36,908 nucleotides of DNA. It comes from Spirochaetaceae bacterium (GTDB taxonomy: Bacteria > Spirochaetota > Spirochaetia > Treponematales > Treponemataceae). Location: positions 1-36,908 of the forward strand of contig JAGAAX010000044.1 of NCBI GenBank assembly GCA_017614995.1, given 5' to 3'. Both the position numbers and the translations under genes were made by a program. Position 1 is the first letter of the stretch. Each line of letters begins with the position of its first letter. Shown here piece by piece: positions 1-33,794 of this stretch. The notes under the pieces are model-generated. The model saw only the letters and a program-made list of their open reading frames with translations. It was not told where the DNA came from and did no database searches.

Positions 1-35
1 ACTTGGTACTTGGTACTTGGTACTTGGGGATATAC
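1..35. repeat. ACTTGGT heptanucleotide tandem repeat at left edge
   Basis: The window opens with four tandem copies of the 7-bp unit ACTTGGT, the last ending in G instead of T. The array may continue left of the window. The unit length is not a multiple of three, so a copy-number change would shift any reading frame that crosses it. Confidence 0.8.
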
Positions 36-29394: not shown

Positions 29395-31164
29395 ATGGAT
29401 AAAAATGAAATCCTTGAACGTGCAAAAGCATACATCAAAGATGAAAAAGACGCAGGTTTTGCAAAAGAAGTAACCGACTTAATCGCAAAAGAAGACTTTG
29501 CAGAACTTGAAGACCGTTTCTACCGCAACCTTGAATTTGGTACAGGCGGTCTCCGCGGTGTAATTGGTGGCGGCACAAACCGCATGAACACATTTGTCAT
29601 CAACAATGCAACACAAGGTCTTGCAAACTATTTTATCAAGACTTTCCCTGAAAAAGCAAAGGCAGGCAAACTTTCTGCTGTTGTTGCATTTGACTCAAGA
29701 CGCTACTCTGACGTTTTTGCAGAAGCAACCGCACTGATTTTTGCCGCCAACGGTTTCAAGACTTATCTTTTCACAAGTCTCCGCCCTACACCGGAACTTT
29801 CATTTGCTATCAGAAAATTGGGCTGCGACACAGGCGTTGTTGTTACAGCTTCGCACAACCCGCCGCAGTATAACGGCTACAAAGCATATTGGAACGACGG
29901 TGCACAGGTTATTGAGCCGCACGATGTCGGCATCATCAACGAAGTAAATTCTGTAACAAACGTAAAGACAATCAGCAAAGAAGAAGCCCTTAAAAGCGGC
30001 AAGCTCGTAATGATTGACAAAGAAATCGATGAGCCTTACTGGGCAATGGTAAAATCTCAGCTTTTCAGACCGGAACTCATTGCAAAGCTTGCAAAAGACG
30101 TAAAAGTTGTGTACACACCGCTTCATGGCACAGGCGCAATGCATGTTGAAAAAGTCTTGAGCAGCTTGGGCTTAAACGTAACCACAGTGCCGGAACAGCG
30201 CGAACCTGACGGCACATTCCACACAGTTGAAAAGCCAAACCCTGAAGAAGCTCCTGCTCTTAAAATGGCAGTTGAACTTGCAGAAAAGGTTAAAGCTGAC
30301 GTTGTAATGGCAACCGACCCGGACGCTGACCGTTTCGGCAGTGCAGTTTCAGGCAAAGACGGAAAATTCGTGCTTATTTCCGGCAACCAGATGGGCGTGC
30401 TTCTTACAGACTATATTCTCTGTTCACGCAAAGAACTTGGCAAAATGCCGAAGAATCCTGCAATGATCCGCTCAATTGTAACTTCTCCGATGGTTGACAA
30501 GATGGCAGCCGCAAACGGCGTTTATCTTTCAGAATGTCTTACAGGCTTTAAATGGATTGCTTCTGACATGGCGCGCTTTGAATCAACCGGCAGCCATTCG
30601 TATATTTTCGGTTTTGAAGAAAGCTACGGCTACAACGTAGAGACAGACGTGCGCGACAAGGACGGTGTTTCTGCCGCCGCAATGTGTGCCGAAATGACAC
30701 TTTACTGGAGAAGCAAGGGCAAATCTCTGCTTGAGCGTCTTGAAGAACTTTACAGCGAATACGGCTACTACGAAGACTGTGCTATTTCAAAGAACTTTGC
30801 CGGTGCATCTGGTGCAGAAACCATGAAAGGCATTATGGCAAAGCTTAGAAAAGACGGCTTCAAAGTTCTCGGCGGCAAAAAAGTTGTAAAAATCCGCGAC
30901 GTTCAGCAGAGCATTGTTTTTGACCCTGCCAACCCGTCAAAGACTGAAAAGCTCAACCTGCCGAAGAGCAACGTTCTTCAGTTCTTCCTTGAAGGCGGCA
31001 CAGTTGTAAGTGCCCGCCCGAGCGGCACAGAACCAAAGATTAAGTTCTACATCAACGCACAGGTGCCTGTAAAAGGCGGACTTGACGCTGCCAAAAAAGA
31101 AGCTGATTCACTTTGCGCCGCAATCAAGTCAGAGATAAACGCTGTTCTTGATGCCGCAAACTGA
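29395..31164 (+). CDS. Phosphoglucomutase/phosphomannomutase
   Basis: Interconverts hexose 1- and 6-phosphates, linking glycolysis with glycan and storage-sugar synthesis. The alpha-D-phosphohexomutase motifs are present in order: phosphoserine loop TASHNPPQYNGYK, metal loop DPDADRFG, sugar loop GFEESYGY and phosphate-binding RPSGTEPKIKFY. The ~589-residue length fits the PgcA/ManB-type subfamily. AAAAGGAG lies 12 nt before ATG 29395, a rather long spacing; a TTG at 29368 lacks any site. A TATAAT at 29346-29351 is the likely -10. The next gene overlaps its end. Confidence 0.92.
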   Translation: MDKNEILERAKAYIKDEKDAGFAKEVTDLIAKEDFAELEDRFYRNLEFGTGGLRGVIGGGTNRMNTFVINNATQGLANYFIKTFPEKAKAGKLSAVVAFDSRRYSDVFAEATALIFAANGFKTYLFTSLRPTPELSFAIRKLGCDTGVVVTASHNPPQYNGYKAYWNDGAQVIEPHDVGIINEVNSVTNVKTISKEEALKSGKLVMIDKEIDEPYWAMVKSQLFRPELIAKLAKDVKVVYTPLHGTGAMHVEKVLSSLGLNVTTVPEQREPDGTFHTVEKPNPEEAPALKMAVELAEKVKADVVMATDPDADRFGSAVSGKDGKFVLISGNQMGVLLTDYILCSRKELGKMPKNPAMIRSIVTSPMVDKMAAANGVYLSECLTGFKWIASDMARFESTGSHSYIFGFEESYGYNVETDVRDKDGVSAAAMCAEMTLYWRSKGKSLLERLEELYSEYGYYEDCAISKNFAGASGAETMKGIMAKLRKDGFKVLGGKKVVKIRDVQQSIVFDPANPSKTEKLNLPKSNVLQFFLEGGTVVSARPSGTEPKIKFYINAQVPVKGGLDAAKKEADSLCAAIKSEINAVLDAAN

Positions 31165-31771
31165 TAAAATGCTTGAAATTCAAGATTTGCTCCAGATGTA
31201 TGATTCTGGAGCAGTTTTTACCGCCTTTGATACCGAAACCACAGGTCTCAACCCCGAAGAAGAGAAGATTCTTGAAATCGGCGCTGTTTCATTTGACAGG
31301 CTCGGTATCAGGGCGCGCTACAATGTATTGATTAATCCTCAACGGAAGATTCTGCCCGAAATTACACGCGTAAACGGAATTGATGACGCTATGGTGAGCG
31401 GCAAACCGGTTTTTGCTGAAAACGCAGGGCATTTTCTTGATTTTATAAAAGGTTCAGTGCTTATTGCGCACAACGCGCCTTTTGATTTGGGCTTTGTGAA
31501 CACAGAGCTTAGCCGCATAAACATGCCGCCGCTTCAAAACGAAACAGCGGACACGCTCAAGCTTTCAAGAGACATGCTGCCGGATTTGGGCAAATACAAC
31601 TTGCAGTTTTTGGCAAAATATTTTGAGATCAACGTCGTAAACGCCCACCGCGCCGAAGATGATGCAAGAGTCTGCATGGAAGTTTTTCTAAAGCTTCTAG
31701 ATAAAATCAGACCCCCAAAACCTGAACCAACCGAGCCGCCGCCCGAACAAGCGCAGCCCAATCAGCAATAA
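31151..31771 (+). CDS. DnaQ-like DEDDh 3'-5' exonuclease
   Basis: A stand-alone exonuclease of the DNA polymerase III epsilon fold. ExoI reads FDTETTGL, ExoII HNAPFDLGF, ExoIII HRAEDDAR, giving a full DEDDh set. The product is ~206 residues with a Pro-rich tail (PPKPEPTEPPPEQAQ). The first ATG in frame (31151) overlaps the end of the phosphoglucomutase gene; ATG 31169, just after that stop, is an equally good start, and neither has a Shine-Dalgarno, so translational coupling is likely. Whether it acts in replication proofreading or in RNA/DNA turnover is not shown by context. Confidence 0.85.
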   Translation: MPQTDKMLEIQDLLQMYDSGAVFTAFDTETTGLNPEEEKILEIGAVSFDRLGIRARYNVLINPQRKILPEITRVNGIDDAMVSGKPVFAENAGHFLDFIKGSVLIAHNAPFDLGFVNTELSRINMPPLQNETADTLKLSRDMLPDLGKYNLQFLAKYFEINVVNAHRAEDDARVCMEVFLKLLDKIRPPKPEPTEPPPEQAQPNQQ

Positions 31772-31818: not shown

Positions 31819-31910
31819 AGAAGGTCTCCATTAACCTGCGGTTAAAATCCGTAAAGAGATGAACTTTAAGAGAGACCGTCCTCTTCAATGTGGACGGTCT
31901 TATTTTTTTA
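31819..31910 (+). ncRNA. Unidentified three-way-junction RNA with overlapping terminator
   Basis: A ~90-nt transcript is predicted from its promoter to a strong terminator. P1 pairs GGTCTC (31823-31828) with GAGACC (31872-31877) and encloses two hairpins: TTAACC/GGTTAA (31831-31845, loop TGC) and TAAAG/CTTTA (31852-31868, 7-nt loop). The 3' strand of P1 is also the 5' strand of the terminator stem AGACCGTCC / GGACGGTCT, so the two folds exclude each other, as in transcription-controlling riboswitches. The T-box, purine, TPP and c-di-GMP signatures I know are absent. It may be a free small RNA or a leader for whatever lay downstream. Confidence 0.5.
31873..31910 (+). terminator. Strong intrinsic terminator
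   Basis: AGACCGTCC (31873-31881) pairs perfectly with GGACGGTCT (31892-31900), 10-nt loop, followed by a T-rich tract. Confidence 0.85.
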
Positions 31911-31919
31911 GGTGGATTT

Positions 31920-32048
31920 ATGTTTTATTTAAAAGAAAAACTTATATTTATCAACATAAATCAAGATTATCTAAAATATGCCCGCTTTGCATTTTTCAAT
32001 CGTCATGATGACGTTTGCTCCTTTTGCGAATTTCATAAAACGTCATAA
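31920..32048 (+). CDS. Doubtful 42-codon ORF after the structured RNA
   Basis: AGGTGG (31911-31916) lies 3 nt before an ATG that opens a 42-codon frame starting MFYLKEKLIFI. Its second half is encoded by the palindromic repeat array, so it is either a tiny leader-controlled gene, the stump of a gene destroyed by repeats, or chance. Confidence 0.2.
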   Translation: MFYLKEKLIFININQDYLKYARFAFFNRHDDVCSFCEFHKTS

Positions 32049-32214
32049 TGACGTTTGCTCACTTTGGCGAATTTCTCAAAACGTCATAATGACGTTTGCC
32101 CACTTTGGTGAATTTCTCAAAACGTCATAATAACGTTTGCTTACTTTGGCATTTTCTAAAAACGTCATCGTGACGTTTGTCGCTTTTGGTTTTCCAAAAC
32201 GTCATCATGACGAT
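31999..32214. repeat. Six palindromes CGTCA-N3-TGACG in 40-41 bp tandem array
   Basis: Palindromes start at 32001, 32041, 32082, 32123, 32163 and 32200, so spacings are 40, 41, 41, 40 and 37 bp. The best units read AACGTCATAATGACGTT. Copy 4 has one arm changed (TAACG). The ~27-bp inter-palindrome sequence (TTTGCTCACTTTGGCGAATT and so on) is also related between copies and decays toward the right. The spacing is close to four helical turns. Confidence 0.85.
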
Positions 32215-32224
32215 TGCTTTTCGG

Positions 32225-32520
32225 GTGCGCATAAGCTTGTTCTACGGAATAGGTTTTATTTAGCGCACCGCTGCAAGTTTGCGTTTTGCTTTTGGATTAA
32301 TCTTCAGTTTGAGCTTAATATGGCAAAACGCCCAGTTTGTGCTTTTACACAAACTGGTAACTGGTGCACAAGGGCACCAAACCTGTCATTACCCGGCTTG
32401 ACCGGGTAATCTCGCCGAAAGATTGTCGGGTCACGCCCGACAATGACACATGGATGCAGACTGCCGGTTTTGCGCTACACAAGCTGTCTGTTTTTGCTTT
32501 GCGAAAACAGACGCTTTTCG
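32225..32520. repeat. Dispersed palindromic repeats after the array
   Basis: No gene is seen here. 32225-32268 is a 44-bp module with GTGCGC/GCGCAC ends and internal ATAAGCTTGTT. 32332-32357 is a hairpin CCAGTTTGTG / CACAAACTGG. 32384-32448 is a 65-bp element with TGTCATT/AATGACA ends and two perfect 9-bp hairpins (ATTACCCGG/CCGGGTAAT; ATTGTCGGG/CCCGACAAT). 32486-32512 is a 12-bp hairpin GTCTGTTTTTGC / GCGAAAACAGAC with loop TTT. Confidence 0.75.
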
Positions 32521-32561
32521 CTGAATAATCTTTATTTGTAAATAAAGCTGTTGCGAAAAGA

Positions 32562-32605
32562 GTTTCGCCAGATAAGCCTTGTTTATAGATTAAGCTAGTG
32601 CGAAA
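32562..32605. repeat. GTTTCGCCAG...GCGAAA module overlapping a gene end
   Basis: This 44-bp module shares GTTTCGCCAG, TAGATTAAGC and GCGAAA with 13716-13761. Its right part encodes the last codons (F-S-H-stop) of the glycosyltransferase on the minus strand. Confidence 0.6.
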
Positions 32606-33794
32606 AGAGTTCAAGCGCGTGAAAAAGCCTTATGGTTTTCAGGCTGTCGAACCAGCAGTGAAAGGCTCTTAGAAGTGTCTTTGTGTTATTGCGGTTCTGC
32701 TTAAAAAGATTCTGCCAAACCGAGTCGAATTTTTCTTCTTTTAAGAAAGCGGCAAGCAAAGCTGATATTTTTGCGGCACGCTCAAGAAATTCTTCTGTAA
32801 GCGGCTCGCCCTGCTCTACGGCTTTTGCGCATATTTCTTCAGCAAGAGCAATAAAATCAGATAAAACCCTAAAAGACTCATCCGCAAAATCTTTGATTTT
32901 GTACGTTCCGTTTATAGTGCCTGAAATTGCCGCGCCTGTTCCAAAAGGCACGCGCCAAGAAACCCTCGGCGAAGGGTGAACAGAAGTCGGAATCTCTATA
33001 AAAGCTTTTTCGGTCGTGCTTTTAAGCAGAGCCTGAAGATAATAAAAGTCTTCGCCTGCAACGTGCCTGTTCATTCCGCCACAAGCAGCATATATTTCAG
33101 TGGTGCATATAAGCGTAGGACCAAGCGCAACATAAAACCAGGGCGATTTTGCTTTTTTAAGCTTTTCAGAGTGCCGCTTAAGATAAGCTTCATATTCTAC
33201 GATTATGCTGTTTTCCTGCGCTGTGCCGTCAAGCCGGTGCGAAAAATCTGTTACACCGGCGCGCGGTCTTTTCTTCAATTTCGGGCTGAAAAAAGCGTCA
33301 TCTATTGCGCAGAAATATCCGCAGTCTACAATGGTGTCGCTGTCCATGCAGCATAAAAGCGCGTCTGCTGTGCCGCCGCTTGAAATATACGCAAAGTCTA
33401 GCGCGATTTTTCTTGCAAGCCCTGCACCGTCTTTTTCGCTCATAGTTCTGCCGTCTGTGCAGGCGTCAATTGCTCTAAACCGCGACTGGTCGTAAGAGCC
33501 GAGCACTTCAAGAAGCTTCTGGTTGTTGGCTTTTACCTCTTCGCTGTGGCTTTCGCGGTTATTCACGTTTATCACGTAACAGATTTTCTTCGGCGCAAGA
33601 TTCTGCTCTTTGCAGCGCGCCTTGTAAAAGGCTTCGGCTTTTTCAAGTGATTCAATTGTTTTCAGTATAAGAGGATACTCATTTATAGCCGGAATACACA
33701 CAAAAATGTCGCCGTCAAGCGGCTCAAGCCCGGCAATATAAGGCTCTGTAATCTGCATCCGCTTTTTTCTGTAAGTTTCAGTCGAATGAATCAT
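32595..33794 (-). CDS. Family-2-like glycosyltransferase
   Basis: A 399-residue cytosolic protein resembling GT-A fold glycosyltransferases: an N-terminal IFVCIPAINEYPLILKTIESL strand-loop-helix, an LLCCMDSDTIVD stretch containing DxD, and a later GGMNRHVAGEDFYYLQ acceptor-side motif. It has no membrane segments. Donor and acceptor are unknown. It is the last gene of an rlmI-like > miaA > glycosyltransferase operon; its ATG overlaps the miaA stop as ATGA. The C-terminal FSH-stop is encoded by a dispersed repeat, so the native C-terminus may have been altered. Confidence 0.7.
   Translation of the reverse strand: MIHSTETYRKKRMQITEPYIAGLEPLDGDIFVCIPAINEYPLILKTIESLEKAEAFYKARCKEQNLAPKKICYVINVNNRESHSEEVKANNQKLLEVLGSYDQSRFRAIDACTDGRTMSEKDGAGLARKIALDFAYISSGGTADALLCCMDSDTIVDCGYFCAIDDAFFSPKLKKRPRAGVTDFSHRLDGTAQENSIIVEYEAYLKRHSEKLKKAKSPWFYVALGPTLICTTEIYAACGGMNRHVAGEDFYYLQALLKSTTEKAFIEIPTSVHPSPRVSWRVPFGTGAAISGTINGTYKIKDFADESFRVLSDFIALAEEICAKAVEQGEPLTEEFLERAAKISALLAAFLKEEKFDSVWQNLFKQNRNNTKTLLRAFHCWFDSLKTIRLFHALELFSH

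What the first reader, a model, noticed from the sequence alone, without database searches (positions are those of the whole stretch)
31999..32214. Array of six palindromes spaced by four helical turns
CGTCA-N3-TGACG palindromes recur every 40-41 bp (last interval 37), placing the sites on one face of the helix. The arms are better kept than the intervening sequence, especially in copies 5 and 6, suggesting selection on the palindromes. Candidates are a cooperative regulator site, an iteron-like or chromosome-organising protein site, or a tandem hairpin RNA.
Basis: seen in the sequence. Interest (0 to 1): 0.55.

Follow-up and report, generated by a model that had tools for sequence, protein, structure and literature searches.

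The report
Scattered palindrome arrays with fixed pitch
Six mirror-image DNA sites spaced about 41 bases apart are one copy of a repeat that this spirochaete carries at several places between genes, and the spacing and mirror symmetry look better kept than the letters themselves.

Summary
In detail: six palindromes at 32001-32212, intervals 40, 41, 41, 40, 37; full dyad AAWCGTMATNATKACGWTT. It is not a local operator. Such arrays sit at eight places in this genome and five in the related MAG Spiro_07 (13 arrays, 75 palindromes compiled); the orthologous window locus in Spiro_07 has none. In the own genome perfect symmetric cores occur only inside arrays, so no regulon of single sites shows. 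Arrays are polar: 10 of 13 end in a 37-bp interval.

Stretches sampled from five genomes of the genus show a wider class (four of five): arrays with quite different palindromes (AAATWTCA-NN-TGAWATTT, AACCTTATNATAAGGTT, TTCCTTA-N3-TAAGGAA, TTTAAATCA-N3-TGATTTAAA, TTCCGCA-N3-TGCGGAA) keep a 40-41-bp pitch, several with a 36-37-bp interval at one end. In three families centres flip as units (C/G, AA/TT, AAA/TTT), the mark of template switching at hairpins.

Best reading: a dispersed extragenic palindrome-array element, REP/BIME- or sopC-like in build, shown to be a member of neither. The A-type dyad equals the Gram-positive Zur box, but context and the genome's own likely Zur box speak against Zur. 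Function unproven. A DUF6261 gene lies downstream of an array in three species: a lead.

The parts
31979..31997 (+). partial spacer-like start of the array (no palindrome recognisable before it)
   Evidence: alignments with arrays of L006 (C34), L047 (S12), L019 (S19), L020 (S20) and L048 (S23) begin at window 31979
31998..32016 (.). palindrome 1, AATCGTCATGATGACGTTT (9-1-9)
32017..32037 (+). spacer 1, 21 nt
32038..32056 (.). palindrome 2, AAACGTCATAATGACGTTT
32057..32078 (+). spacer 2, 22 nt (body type)
32079..32097 (.). palindrome 3, AAACGTCATAATGACGTTT
32098..32119 (+). spacer 3, 22 nt (body type)
32120..32138 (.). palindrome 4, AAACGTCATAATAACGTTT (one asymmetric pair)
32139..32159 (+). 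spacer 4, 21 nt (penultimate type)
   Evidence: identical spacer in array C48
32160..32178 (.). palindrome 5, AAACGTCATCGTGACGTTT (one asymmetric pair)
32179..32196 (+). spacer 5, 18 nt terminal type, gives the 37-bp last interval
   Evidence: last spacer is 18 nt in 10 of 13 arrays
32197..32215 (.). palindrome 6, AAACGTCATCATGACGATT
32119..32221 (+). block 95% identical over 105 alignment columns to the array upstream of mnmG (C48, L007 9993-10097), unrelated flanks
31148..31771 (+). upstream neighbour: DnaQ-type exonuclease gene
   Evidence: NCBIfam TIGR00573, 149.4 bits against a cut-off of 71.5
31872..31909 (+). terminator-like hairpin plus T run between the exonuclease gene and the array
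   Evidence: read; the stretch 31862-31912 folds at -20 kcal/mol, z -5.3; the consensus scan did not list it
32595..33794 (-). downstream neighbour, convergent, 399-aa ORF without Pfam or NCBIfam match

Best explanation
The array is one copy of a dispersed, non-coding, extragenic repeat element built from tandem units of about 41 bp, each holding one hairpin-capable dyad. Units multiply by tandem duplication in the middle of the array, while the array keeps a special end (usually 40, then 37 bp). Whole arrays or parts of them are copied to other intergenic places. Each dyad is kept symmetric partly by the dyad itself: when it folds as a hairpin during replication, template switching rewrites one arm from the other and flips the centre. 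Shown: dispersal, polarity, presence/absence, better-kept arms, unit-wise flipping of centres in three families, a pitch shared by families with different palindromes. Inferred: template switching as the cause, copying as the mode of spread, and the absence of a job for the neighbouring genes. It works like a REP/BIME-type extragenic palindrome cluster without meeting that family's definition.
For: Eight arrays in the own genome and five in Spiro_07. Window locus and mnmG locus: array in the own genome, absent from the corresponding DNA read from relatives. Window units 4-6 equal array C48 at 95% with unrelated flanks. Last spacer 18 nt in 10 of 13 arrays, shuffle mean 4.5, p 0.0001; in the 11 arrays with more than one spacer 8, mean 2.5, p 0.0004. 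Centres: between neighbouring family A units 17 of 28 centre changes are C/G, against 9 of 65 spacer changes, Fisher p 1e-5, units not independent; family B centres AA or TT in 21 of 21 units; family D of G001 C or G in 9 of 9; family C AAA or TTT in 6 of 6, its search pattern allowing only A and T there. Paired change at columns 7/13 (A-T to C-G) in 16 of 39 distinct family A units, covariation score 0.152 against 0.054 shuffled (0 of 500 shuffles as high) and at most 0.013 in slid registers; family B 0.115 against 0.060, 19 of 500 shuffles as high. Arm homogenisation and spacer inversion by template switching are described in PMC8604942 (abstract start in the listing) and PMC8794818 (passages). 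Neighbouring genes are convergent, tandem or divergent without an evident rule.
Against: The core letters are nearly invariant in 49 internal palindromes apart from columns 3, 7, 10, 13 and 17; pure hairpin upkeep would let letters drift further within a family. A constant 40-41-bp pitch across families with palindromes of 17 to 21 bp is not explained by hairpin upkeep unless the families share descent, which spacer similarity supports only weakly (A-B p 0.02, B-G p 0.005, 45 tests uncorrected). No mobilising enzyme was identified; the own genome lacks a Y1 transposase. Concordance at columns 7/13 inside dyads (70 of 75) is not significantly above that across spacers (52 of 62; p 0.10), and the two count measures (pairs changed on both sides, further pair types) do not exceed their shuffles. 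Centres do not simply flip in family F (CGG, CGG, TGG, GCG, CGC) or G (TTT, TTT, TTC, TTT).
Confidence: 0.48

Rival explanations
1. A docking array for a dimeric DNA-binding protein, sopC-like: each 41-bp unit offers one dimer site and the roughly four-turn pitch lets bound dimers assemble along the DNA, for chromosome partition, nucleoid organisation or titration of the protein. Letters drift together with the protein; dyad and pitch stay.
For: Dyad plus pitch kept while letters differ between families. A terminal 36-37-bp interval recurs with other palindromes (G004 D 41,40,40,37; G002 F 41,41,36,37; G000 C 37 at one end). Arms differ less than spacers between arrays C10 and S20 (2/108 against 9/103, p 0.03). 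The Christensenella MAG UBA941 has the same core at 41-44-bp pitch with spacers unlike the spirochaete's. F sopC is twelve 43-bp repeats each with a 16-bp inverted repeat bound by a ParB dimer (PMC9178275 passage).
Against: No parAB-like gene among the flanking genes that were profiled; the genome was not searched for parAB. Arrays at eight dispersed places and absent from orthologous places. The search pattern itself demanded the core and one 41-bp step in UBA941. An actin-like partition gene on one UBA941 contig gave no support: four relatives in phage records show no such arrays. Phase on the helix is only approximate.
Confidence: 0.3
2. The palindromes are Zur boxes of the Gram-positive type, arranged as a zinc-sensitive cluster or decoy.
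For: The A-type dyad AATCGTAATNATTACGATT matches the Gram-positive Zur consensus TAAATCGTAATNATTACGATTTA at all 18 arm positions (consensus from passages of PMC2706843 and PMC545781). B. subtilis Zur needs a 9-1-9 repeat (PMC4324032 passage).
Against: Window copies are C-type, differing from that consensus at column 7/13. No zinc gene among the neighbours profiled. The only Fur-family match of the genome lies beside genes whose best-scoring families include ZigA and zinc substrate-binding proteins, all below the curated cut-offs; it has no such dyad upstream (best 12 of 18) but its start carries ATGCAACCATGTTGCAA, 1 mismatch from the Desulfovibrio Zur box ATGCAACNNNGTTGCAT and the only match that close in the genome. 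No perfect symmetric core outside arrays.
Confidence: 0.06
3. A neutral local tandem duplication whose palindrome is incidental.
For: Tandem structure with diverged units.
Against: Recurs at eight places with the same end structure; dyads kept better than spacers; other families with the same pitch.
Confidence: 0.08
4. A tandem-hairpin RNA.
For: The strand folds at -83.1 kcal/mol, z -7.6; single dyads fold as hairpins with 3-4-nt loops under DNA parameters.
Against: Low energy follows from palindromes pairing with each other; no Rfam family at gathering score and only matches far below gathering score; the upstream gene appears to end at a terminator before the array; no consistent orientation to genes.
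Confidence: 0.08

Closest known systems
REP / BIME clusters and CGTC- or GTAG-tagged extragenic palindromes
   Same: Short extragenic palindromes, several families per genome, clustered, dispersed, variable between relatives
   Different: Here units of an array point the same way at a fixed 41-bp pitch; no unpaired GTAG or CGTC tag (CGTC lies inside the stem); no Y1 transposase in the genome; 38 family A palindromes compiled in the own genome rather than hundreds
F plasmid sopC (parS of F) centromere array
   Same: Direct repeats of about 40-43 bp, each with one 16-19-bp inverted repeat in a less kept spacer
   Different: Many dispersed arrays, several palindrome families, no par gene among the neighbours profiled; protein binding unknown
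Gram-positive Zur box
   Same: A-type dyad identical over 9-1-9
   Different: Multi-copy arrays away from zinc genes in the loci examined; C-type copies; the genome's own Fur-family gene carries another box
CRISPR array
   Same: Regularly spaced palindromic units
   Different: Spacers are related to one another; repeat 19 bp; no cas family among the neighbours profiled

Membership tests
REP/BIME (RAYT-associated) | extragenic short palindromes, multi-copy and dispersed | tested here: met
REP/BIME (RAYT-associated) | unpaired GTAG or CGTC tag at one end of the palindrome | tested here: not met
   CGTC is paired with GACG inside the stem in five of six window copies; copy 4 reads AACG on the right; definition from PMC3733652 passages
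REP/BIME (RAYT-associated) | alternating orientation in BIMEs | tested here: not met
   units of each array are direct repeats by spacer orientation; definition from PMC2817692 passage
REP/BIME (RAYT-associated) | Y1 (RAYT-type) transposase in the genome | tested here: not met
   PF01797: 0 matches in the own genome (95% complete), 1 in G004, 1 in G002, 0 in the five other genomes of the genus
sopC-type centromere | tandem 40-43-bp repeats with one inverted repeat each | tested here: met
   definition
sopC-type centromere | parA/parB genes adjacent | tested here: not met
   both neighbours of the window array profiled without a par match; of the other arrays only some neighbours were profiled, and the whole genome was not searched for parAB
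sopC-type centromere | specific ParB-type protein binding | not testable with these tools
   needs binding assays
Zur operator | match to the Zur box of a Zur present in the organism | tested here: inconclusive
   A-type equals the Gram-positive consensus, but the own Fur-family gene carries a Desulfovibrio-type box
Zur operator | located at promoters of zinc genes | tested here: not met
   window array lies between convergent non-zinc genes; the zinc-type operon promoter lacks the dyad; other arrays' neighbours only partly profiled
CRISPR | unrelated spacers between identical repeats | tested here: not met
   spacers of one array and of different arrays are alike
CRISPR | cas genes nearby | not tested
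   only some immediate neighbours were profiled
Known structured RNA | Rfam match at gathering score | tested here: not met
   0 matches in the window

The most novel reading that the evidence does not exclude
A sequence-independent spacing code: in this spirochaete genus a class of extragenic arrays keeps dyad symmetry, a 41-bp pitch and a shortened terminal interval while the palindrome letters turn over, because a protein or complex reads dyad and pitch (a centromere- or nucleoid-organising scaffold), with the DUF6261 protein, encoded directly downstream of such arrays in three species, as its cognate partner or mobiliser.
Probability: 0.15. Interest if true: 0.8.

Novelty: new variant of a known kind. 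Interest (0 to 1): 0.52.

Why it matters
If the pitch and the dyad rather than the letters are selected, these arrays would be a natural experiment in what a palindrome cluster must keep to work, and would link REP-like repeats with sopC-like centromeres. If they are selfish, they are a palindrome repeat without a RAYT in its genome whose upkeep by template switching can be read from flipped centres. Either way there is now a defined family with unit types, ends and a candidate partner gene to test. Four paper searches of the open library listed no description of these arrays; only titles and abstract starts of their hits were seen apart from the papers named, and subscription papers were not covered.

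Tried and rejected
Zur cluster: taken seriously because of the exact A-type match, then lowered. Partition array in UBA941: contig L077 carries an actin-like partition gene and a small gene behind it; a viral-contig search with the small gene gave one weak relative, the plasmid search none, and four of the 18 phage records with a relative of the actin-like gene, fetched whole, have no palindrome arrays. Viral contigs: no array by three patterns. Plasmids and phages by DNA: no match. RAYT: none in the own genome. Rfam: none at gathering score. The sequence model R1 over 291 genomes of the order matched the own genome 29 times and five others once each at E 0.002-0.009, taken as chance; whether Spiro_07 was drawn into that sample is not shown.

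An unbiased scan for perfect dyads with arms of 7 or more, family A masked, gave few neighbour pairs at 40-41 bp: 4 in G000, 2 in G001, 1 in G004, 0 in G006, 4 in G002, against 0, 0, 0, 1 and 0 in one shuffle each. Seven of the eleven lie in arrays already named. Of six places read further, which include two 38-bp pairs in G004, five looked like chance pairs, four of them inside ORFs, and one (L117) lies beside another hairpin repeat. So the class rests on the tandem arrays, not on that scan. Not every 41-bp array shows a palindrome: the one at the end of L180 (G002) has none (arm 3, p 0.89), and in four other rows of 40-41-bp period (L098, two end pieces of family B, L048 first row) the TRF consensus alone gives no significant palindrome.

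DUF6261: one paper holds the name, not read; no solved relative (best E 0.26); no plasmid, phage or viral-contig relative; the single-sequence model is all-helical but poor, pLDDT 52, so no fold search was made. The lead is partly ascertained: two of its three loci were fetched because of their arrays.

Rows left out of the 75 palindromes: single perfect cores in L044 and L045 of G004, taken as remnants; the first C10 palindrome (L009 9638), cut off by an insertion; a degenerate one at L046 2912. Array C32 was first read in the wrong orientation and corrected; it adds nothing to the arm/spacer count, having two spacers of unequal length. Palindromes were found by matching the core with up to 2-3 mismatches, so decayed end units can be missing.

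Full report
WHAT IS THERE. The window holds six palindromes at 32001-32212 with intervals 40, 41, 41, 40 and 37. Four cores are perfect CGTCATNATGACG, two carry one change. The dyad reaches nine bases on each side of a one-base centre. Seven near matches in the window (one outside the array) were reached by none of 100 shuffles. The array lies between a DnaQ-type exonuclease gene (NCBIfam TIGR00573 above cut-off) and a convergent 399-aa ORF without family match. A hairpin with a T run (-20 kcal/mol, z -5.3) stands between the exonuclease gene and the array; the consensus scan, which takes loops of 3-8 only, did not list it.

DISPERSAL. In the own genome (3.05 Mb, 64 contigs) perfect CGTCATNATGACG or CGTAATNATTACG cores occur only inside arrays: C10, C21 (the window), C22, C34 (two arrays), C48, C52, and a decayed one on C32. 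At one mismatch, places outside arrays number 11 for the first pattern (reversed-pattern control 6) and 10 for the second (control 14); one of them, CGTCATAATTACG at C2:8957, is a perfect mixed core inside an ORF. Among 148 genomes (own and relatives) a two-palindrome pattern with a fixed 41-bp step, up to 2 mismatches, hit 2: the own genome and G004. The scan of GTDB species contigs with the exact pattern gave six stretches: four of Spirochaetales bacterium Spiro_07, whose contig lengths equal those of G004, and two of Christensenella sp. UBA941.

PRESENCE AND ABSENCE. In G004 the exonuclease gene and its convergent neighbour are kept with no array between them; in G006 the two genes nearly touch; in G001 another gene follows the exonuclease gene; in G003 one contig ends there and a second exonuclease copy is followed by the same extra gene; in G002 other DNA follows; G005 and G007 gave only distant homologues (34-38% identity). 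Around mnmG only the own genome has cores among the loci read from 8 genomes; for G005 and G007 my extraction of the upstream stretch printed nothing, but no core was found in their loci. Assemblies may break in arrays, so absence from a fragmented MAG is weak evidence; the G004 window locus is intact. Window units 4-6 and the mnmG array are 95% identical over 105 alignment columns, with unrelated flanks.

ANATOMY. I compiled 13 arrays, 75 palindromes and 62 spacers (exclusions in Tried and rejected). Intervals: 41 in 29, 40 in 17, 37 in 13, 38 in 2, 39 in 1. The last spacer is the 18-nt type in 10 of 13 arrays (shuffle mean 4.5, p 0.0001), the first in 4 of 13. So the array has a body of repeated units and a defined end. 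Within arrays arms differ at 78 of 1026 positions, spacers at 200 of 1240. Between the arrays C10 and S20, both upstream of a DUF6261 gene, arms differ at 2 of 108 positions and spacers at 9 of 103 plus 3 gap columns (p 0.03, units not independent). Column 7/13 switches between A-T and C-G on both arms in 16 of 39 distinct units, with a covariation score above all 500 shuffles and every slid register, while two other measures equal their shuffles. Related sequences can produce this too, and concordance inside dyads (70 of 75) is not significantly above that across spacers (52 of 62, p 0.10). Column 3/17 is not paired in 10 of 39 units.

A WIDER CLASS. Looking for other arrays I ran TRF on 0.98 Mb of the own genome (0.79 Mb of it taken without regard to arrays), 0.40 Mb of G001, 0.43 Mb of G004 (including loci fetched for their arrays), 0.15 Mb of G006 and 0.14 Mb of G002. 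Further families appeared: B, AAATWTCA(AA/TT)TGAWATTT, three arrays in the own genome, intervals 41 in 17 of 18 and 40 in one; C, TTCCTTA(AAA/TTT)TAAGGAA in the own genome; D, AACCTTATNATAAGGTT in G001 (41 in all 8 intervals) and G004; F, TTTAAATCA-N3-TGATTTAAA in G002; G, TTCCGCA-N3-TGCGGAA in G002 (41, 41, 40). Palindromes are 17 to 21 bp long, yet the pitch stays 40-41. G006 gave no array of 25-60-bp period. Other periods also occur (26, 27, 30, 32, 33, 39, 46, 47 and 50), and one 41-bp array in G002 (L180) shows no palindrome. Whether families are independent or descend from one array is open; spacer resemblance is weak (A-B p 0.02, A end-G p 0.008, B-G p 0.005, D of G004-G p 0.0005 in reverse orientation, out of 45 tests).

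FLIPPED CENTRES. In family A 17 of 28 centre changes between neighbouring units are C to G or back, against 9 of 65 in spacers (p 1e-5). In B the centre is AA or TT in 21 of 21 units, in D of G001 C or G in 9 of 9, in C AAA or TTT in 6 of 6 (the pattern allowed only A and T). F and G do not show it plainly. Unit-wise flipping is what template switching at a hairpin yields, and the same process makes arms alike (PMC8604942, abstract start in the listing; PMC8794818, passages). It offers a route to symmetry without selection on a protein site, but does not by itself explain the pitch. Family B shows a weaker covariation signal (19 of 500 shuffles as high).

WHAT IT MIGHT DO. The A-type dyad equals the Gram-positive Zur consensus (passages of PMC2706843 and PMC545781). 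Against Zur: no zinc gene among the neighbours profiled, and the only Fur-family match, in what looks like a zinc operon by sub-cut-off family matches, starts with a sequence one mismatch from the Desulfovibrio Zur box, the closest match in the genome. In build the array resembles F sopC, twelve 43-bp repeats each with a 16-bp inverted repeat (PMC9178275 and PMC6238139 passages), and REP/BIME clusters (PMC3733652: passages and the first part of the text; PMC2817692: passages), but fails tests for both. UBA941 shows two arrays (4 and 7 palindromes, two of them with one mismatch) with the same core, pitch 41-44 and spacers unlike the spirochaete's; as the pattern demanded the core and one 41-bp step, only the further copies and the second contig are independent evidence.

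A PARTNER LEAD. A DUF6261 gene lies directly downstream of an array in the own genome (C10), G004 and G001, the three distinct homologues in the DNA held when it was searched. In G001 the palindrome is another one and the stretch was sampled without regard to arrays. C10 and S20 share DNA from the array to the end of the gene (86% over 1038 columns), and no other ORF of 80 aa or more matched between the two loci. In G004 and G001 the gene lies within about 6 kb of the same three genes (gat operon by my own reading), but on opposite sides. Protein identity is 83% and 47%.

VERDICT. A real, recurrent, polar palindrome-array element, ordinary in being an extragenic repeat, unusual in its fixed pitch across different palindromes. 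I give 0.48 to a self-maintaining extragenic repeat, 0.30 to a docking array, the rest to Zur, neutral duplication and RNA.

Noticed in passing
window 32385-32446: Two short stem-loops, TGTCATTACCCGG...CCGGGTAAT and an inverted TGTCATTGTCGGG-type copy, resemble the CGTC-tagged REPs of PMC3733652 (tag TGTC). They lie downstream of the array. Read by eye, not tested.
   Followed up: no
window 32516-32609: Two 47-bp tandem copies (TTTCGC...GCGAAAAGAG, 77% alike); a 47-bp tandem repeat of the same kind recurs in G001 (L127, L138).
   Followed up: partly
L005 17745-18009 (G000 C22), L098 7324-7597 (C48), L120 3991-4262 (C60): Family B arrays: different palindrome, same 41-bp pitch, end spacers with TATATCCAA in two of the three.
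   Followed up: yes
L009 9638-10785; L020 3497-4563; L138 7058-8221: DUF6261 gene directly downstream of a palindrome array in three species, with a different palindrome in G001.
   Followed up: partly
L008 8155-9695: C52 carries a two-palindrome array and the DUF6261-type promoter region in front of a RhuM-family gene, with pieces matching the region around the MmeI-type gene of C10: a rearranged relative of that locus.
   Followed up: partly
L023 9573-9589: Start of the single Fur-family gene overlaps ATGCAACCATGTTGCAA, a Desulfovibrio-type Zur box: a possibly autoregulated Zur in this spirochaete.
   Followed up: partly
L182 1-142, L185 1-158, L180 7687-7772 (G002): Three contigs of G002 begin or end inside tandem arrays of 41-bp period (two with clear palindromes): assemblies seem to break there, so array counts may be lower bounds.
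   Followed up: no
L077, L078 (Christensenella sp. UBA941): Two arrays with the same core palindrome and a 41-44-bp pitch; L077 also holds an actin-like partition gene and a replication-initiator-like gene.
   Followed up: partly
L152 6380-6681, L117 100-305: Another hairpin repeat, TGACAGAAT-loop-ATTCTGTCA, in tandem with a period near 42 in G004 and present in several copies in the own genome.
   Followed up: no
window 1-27: 3.9 perfect copies of ACTTGGT at the very start of the contig.
   Followed up: no
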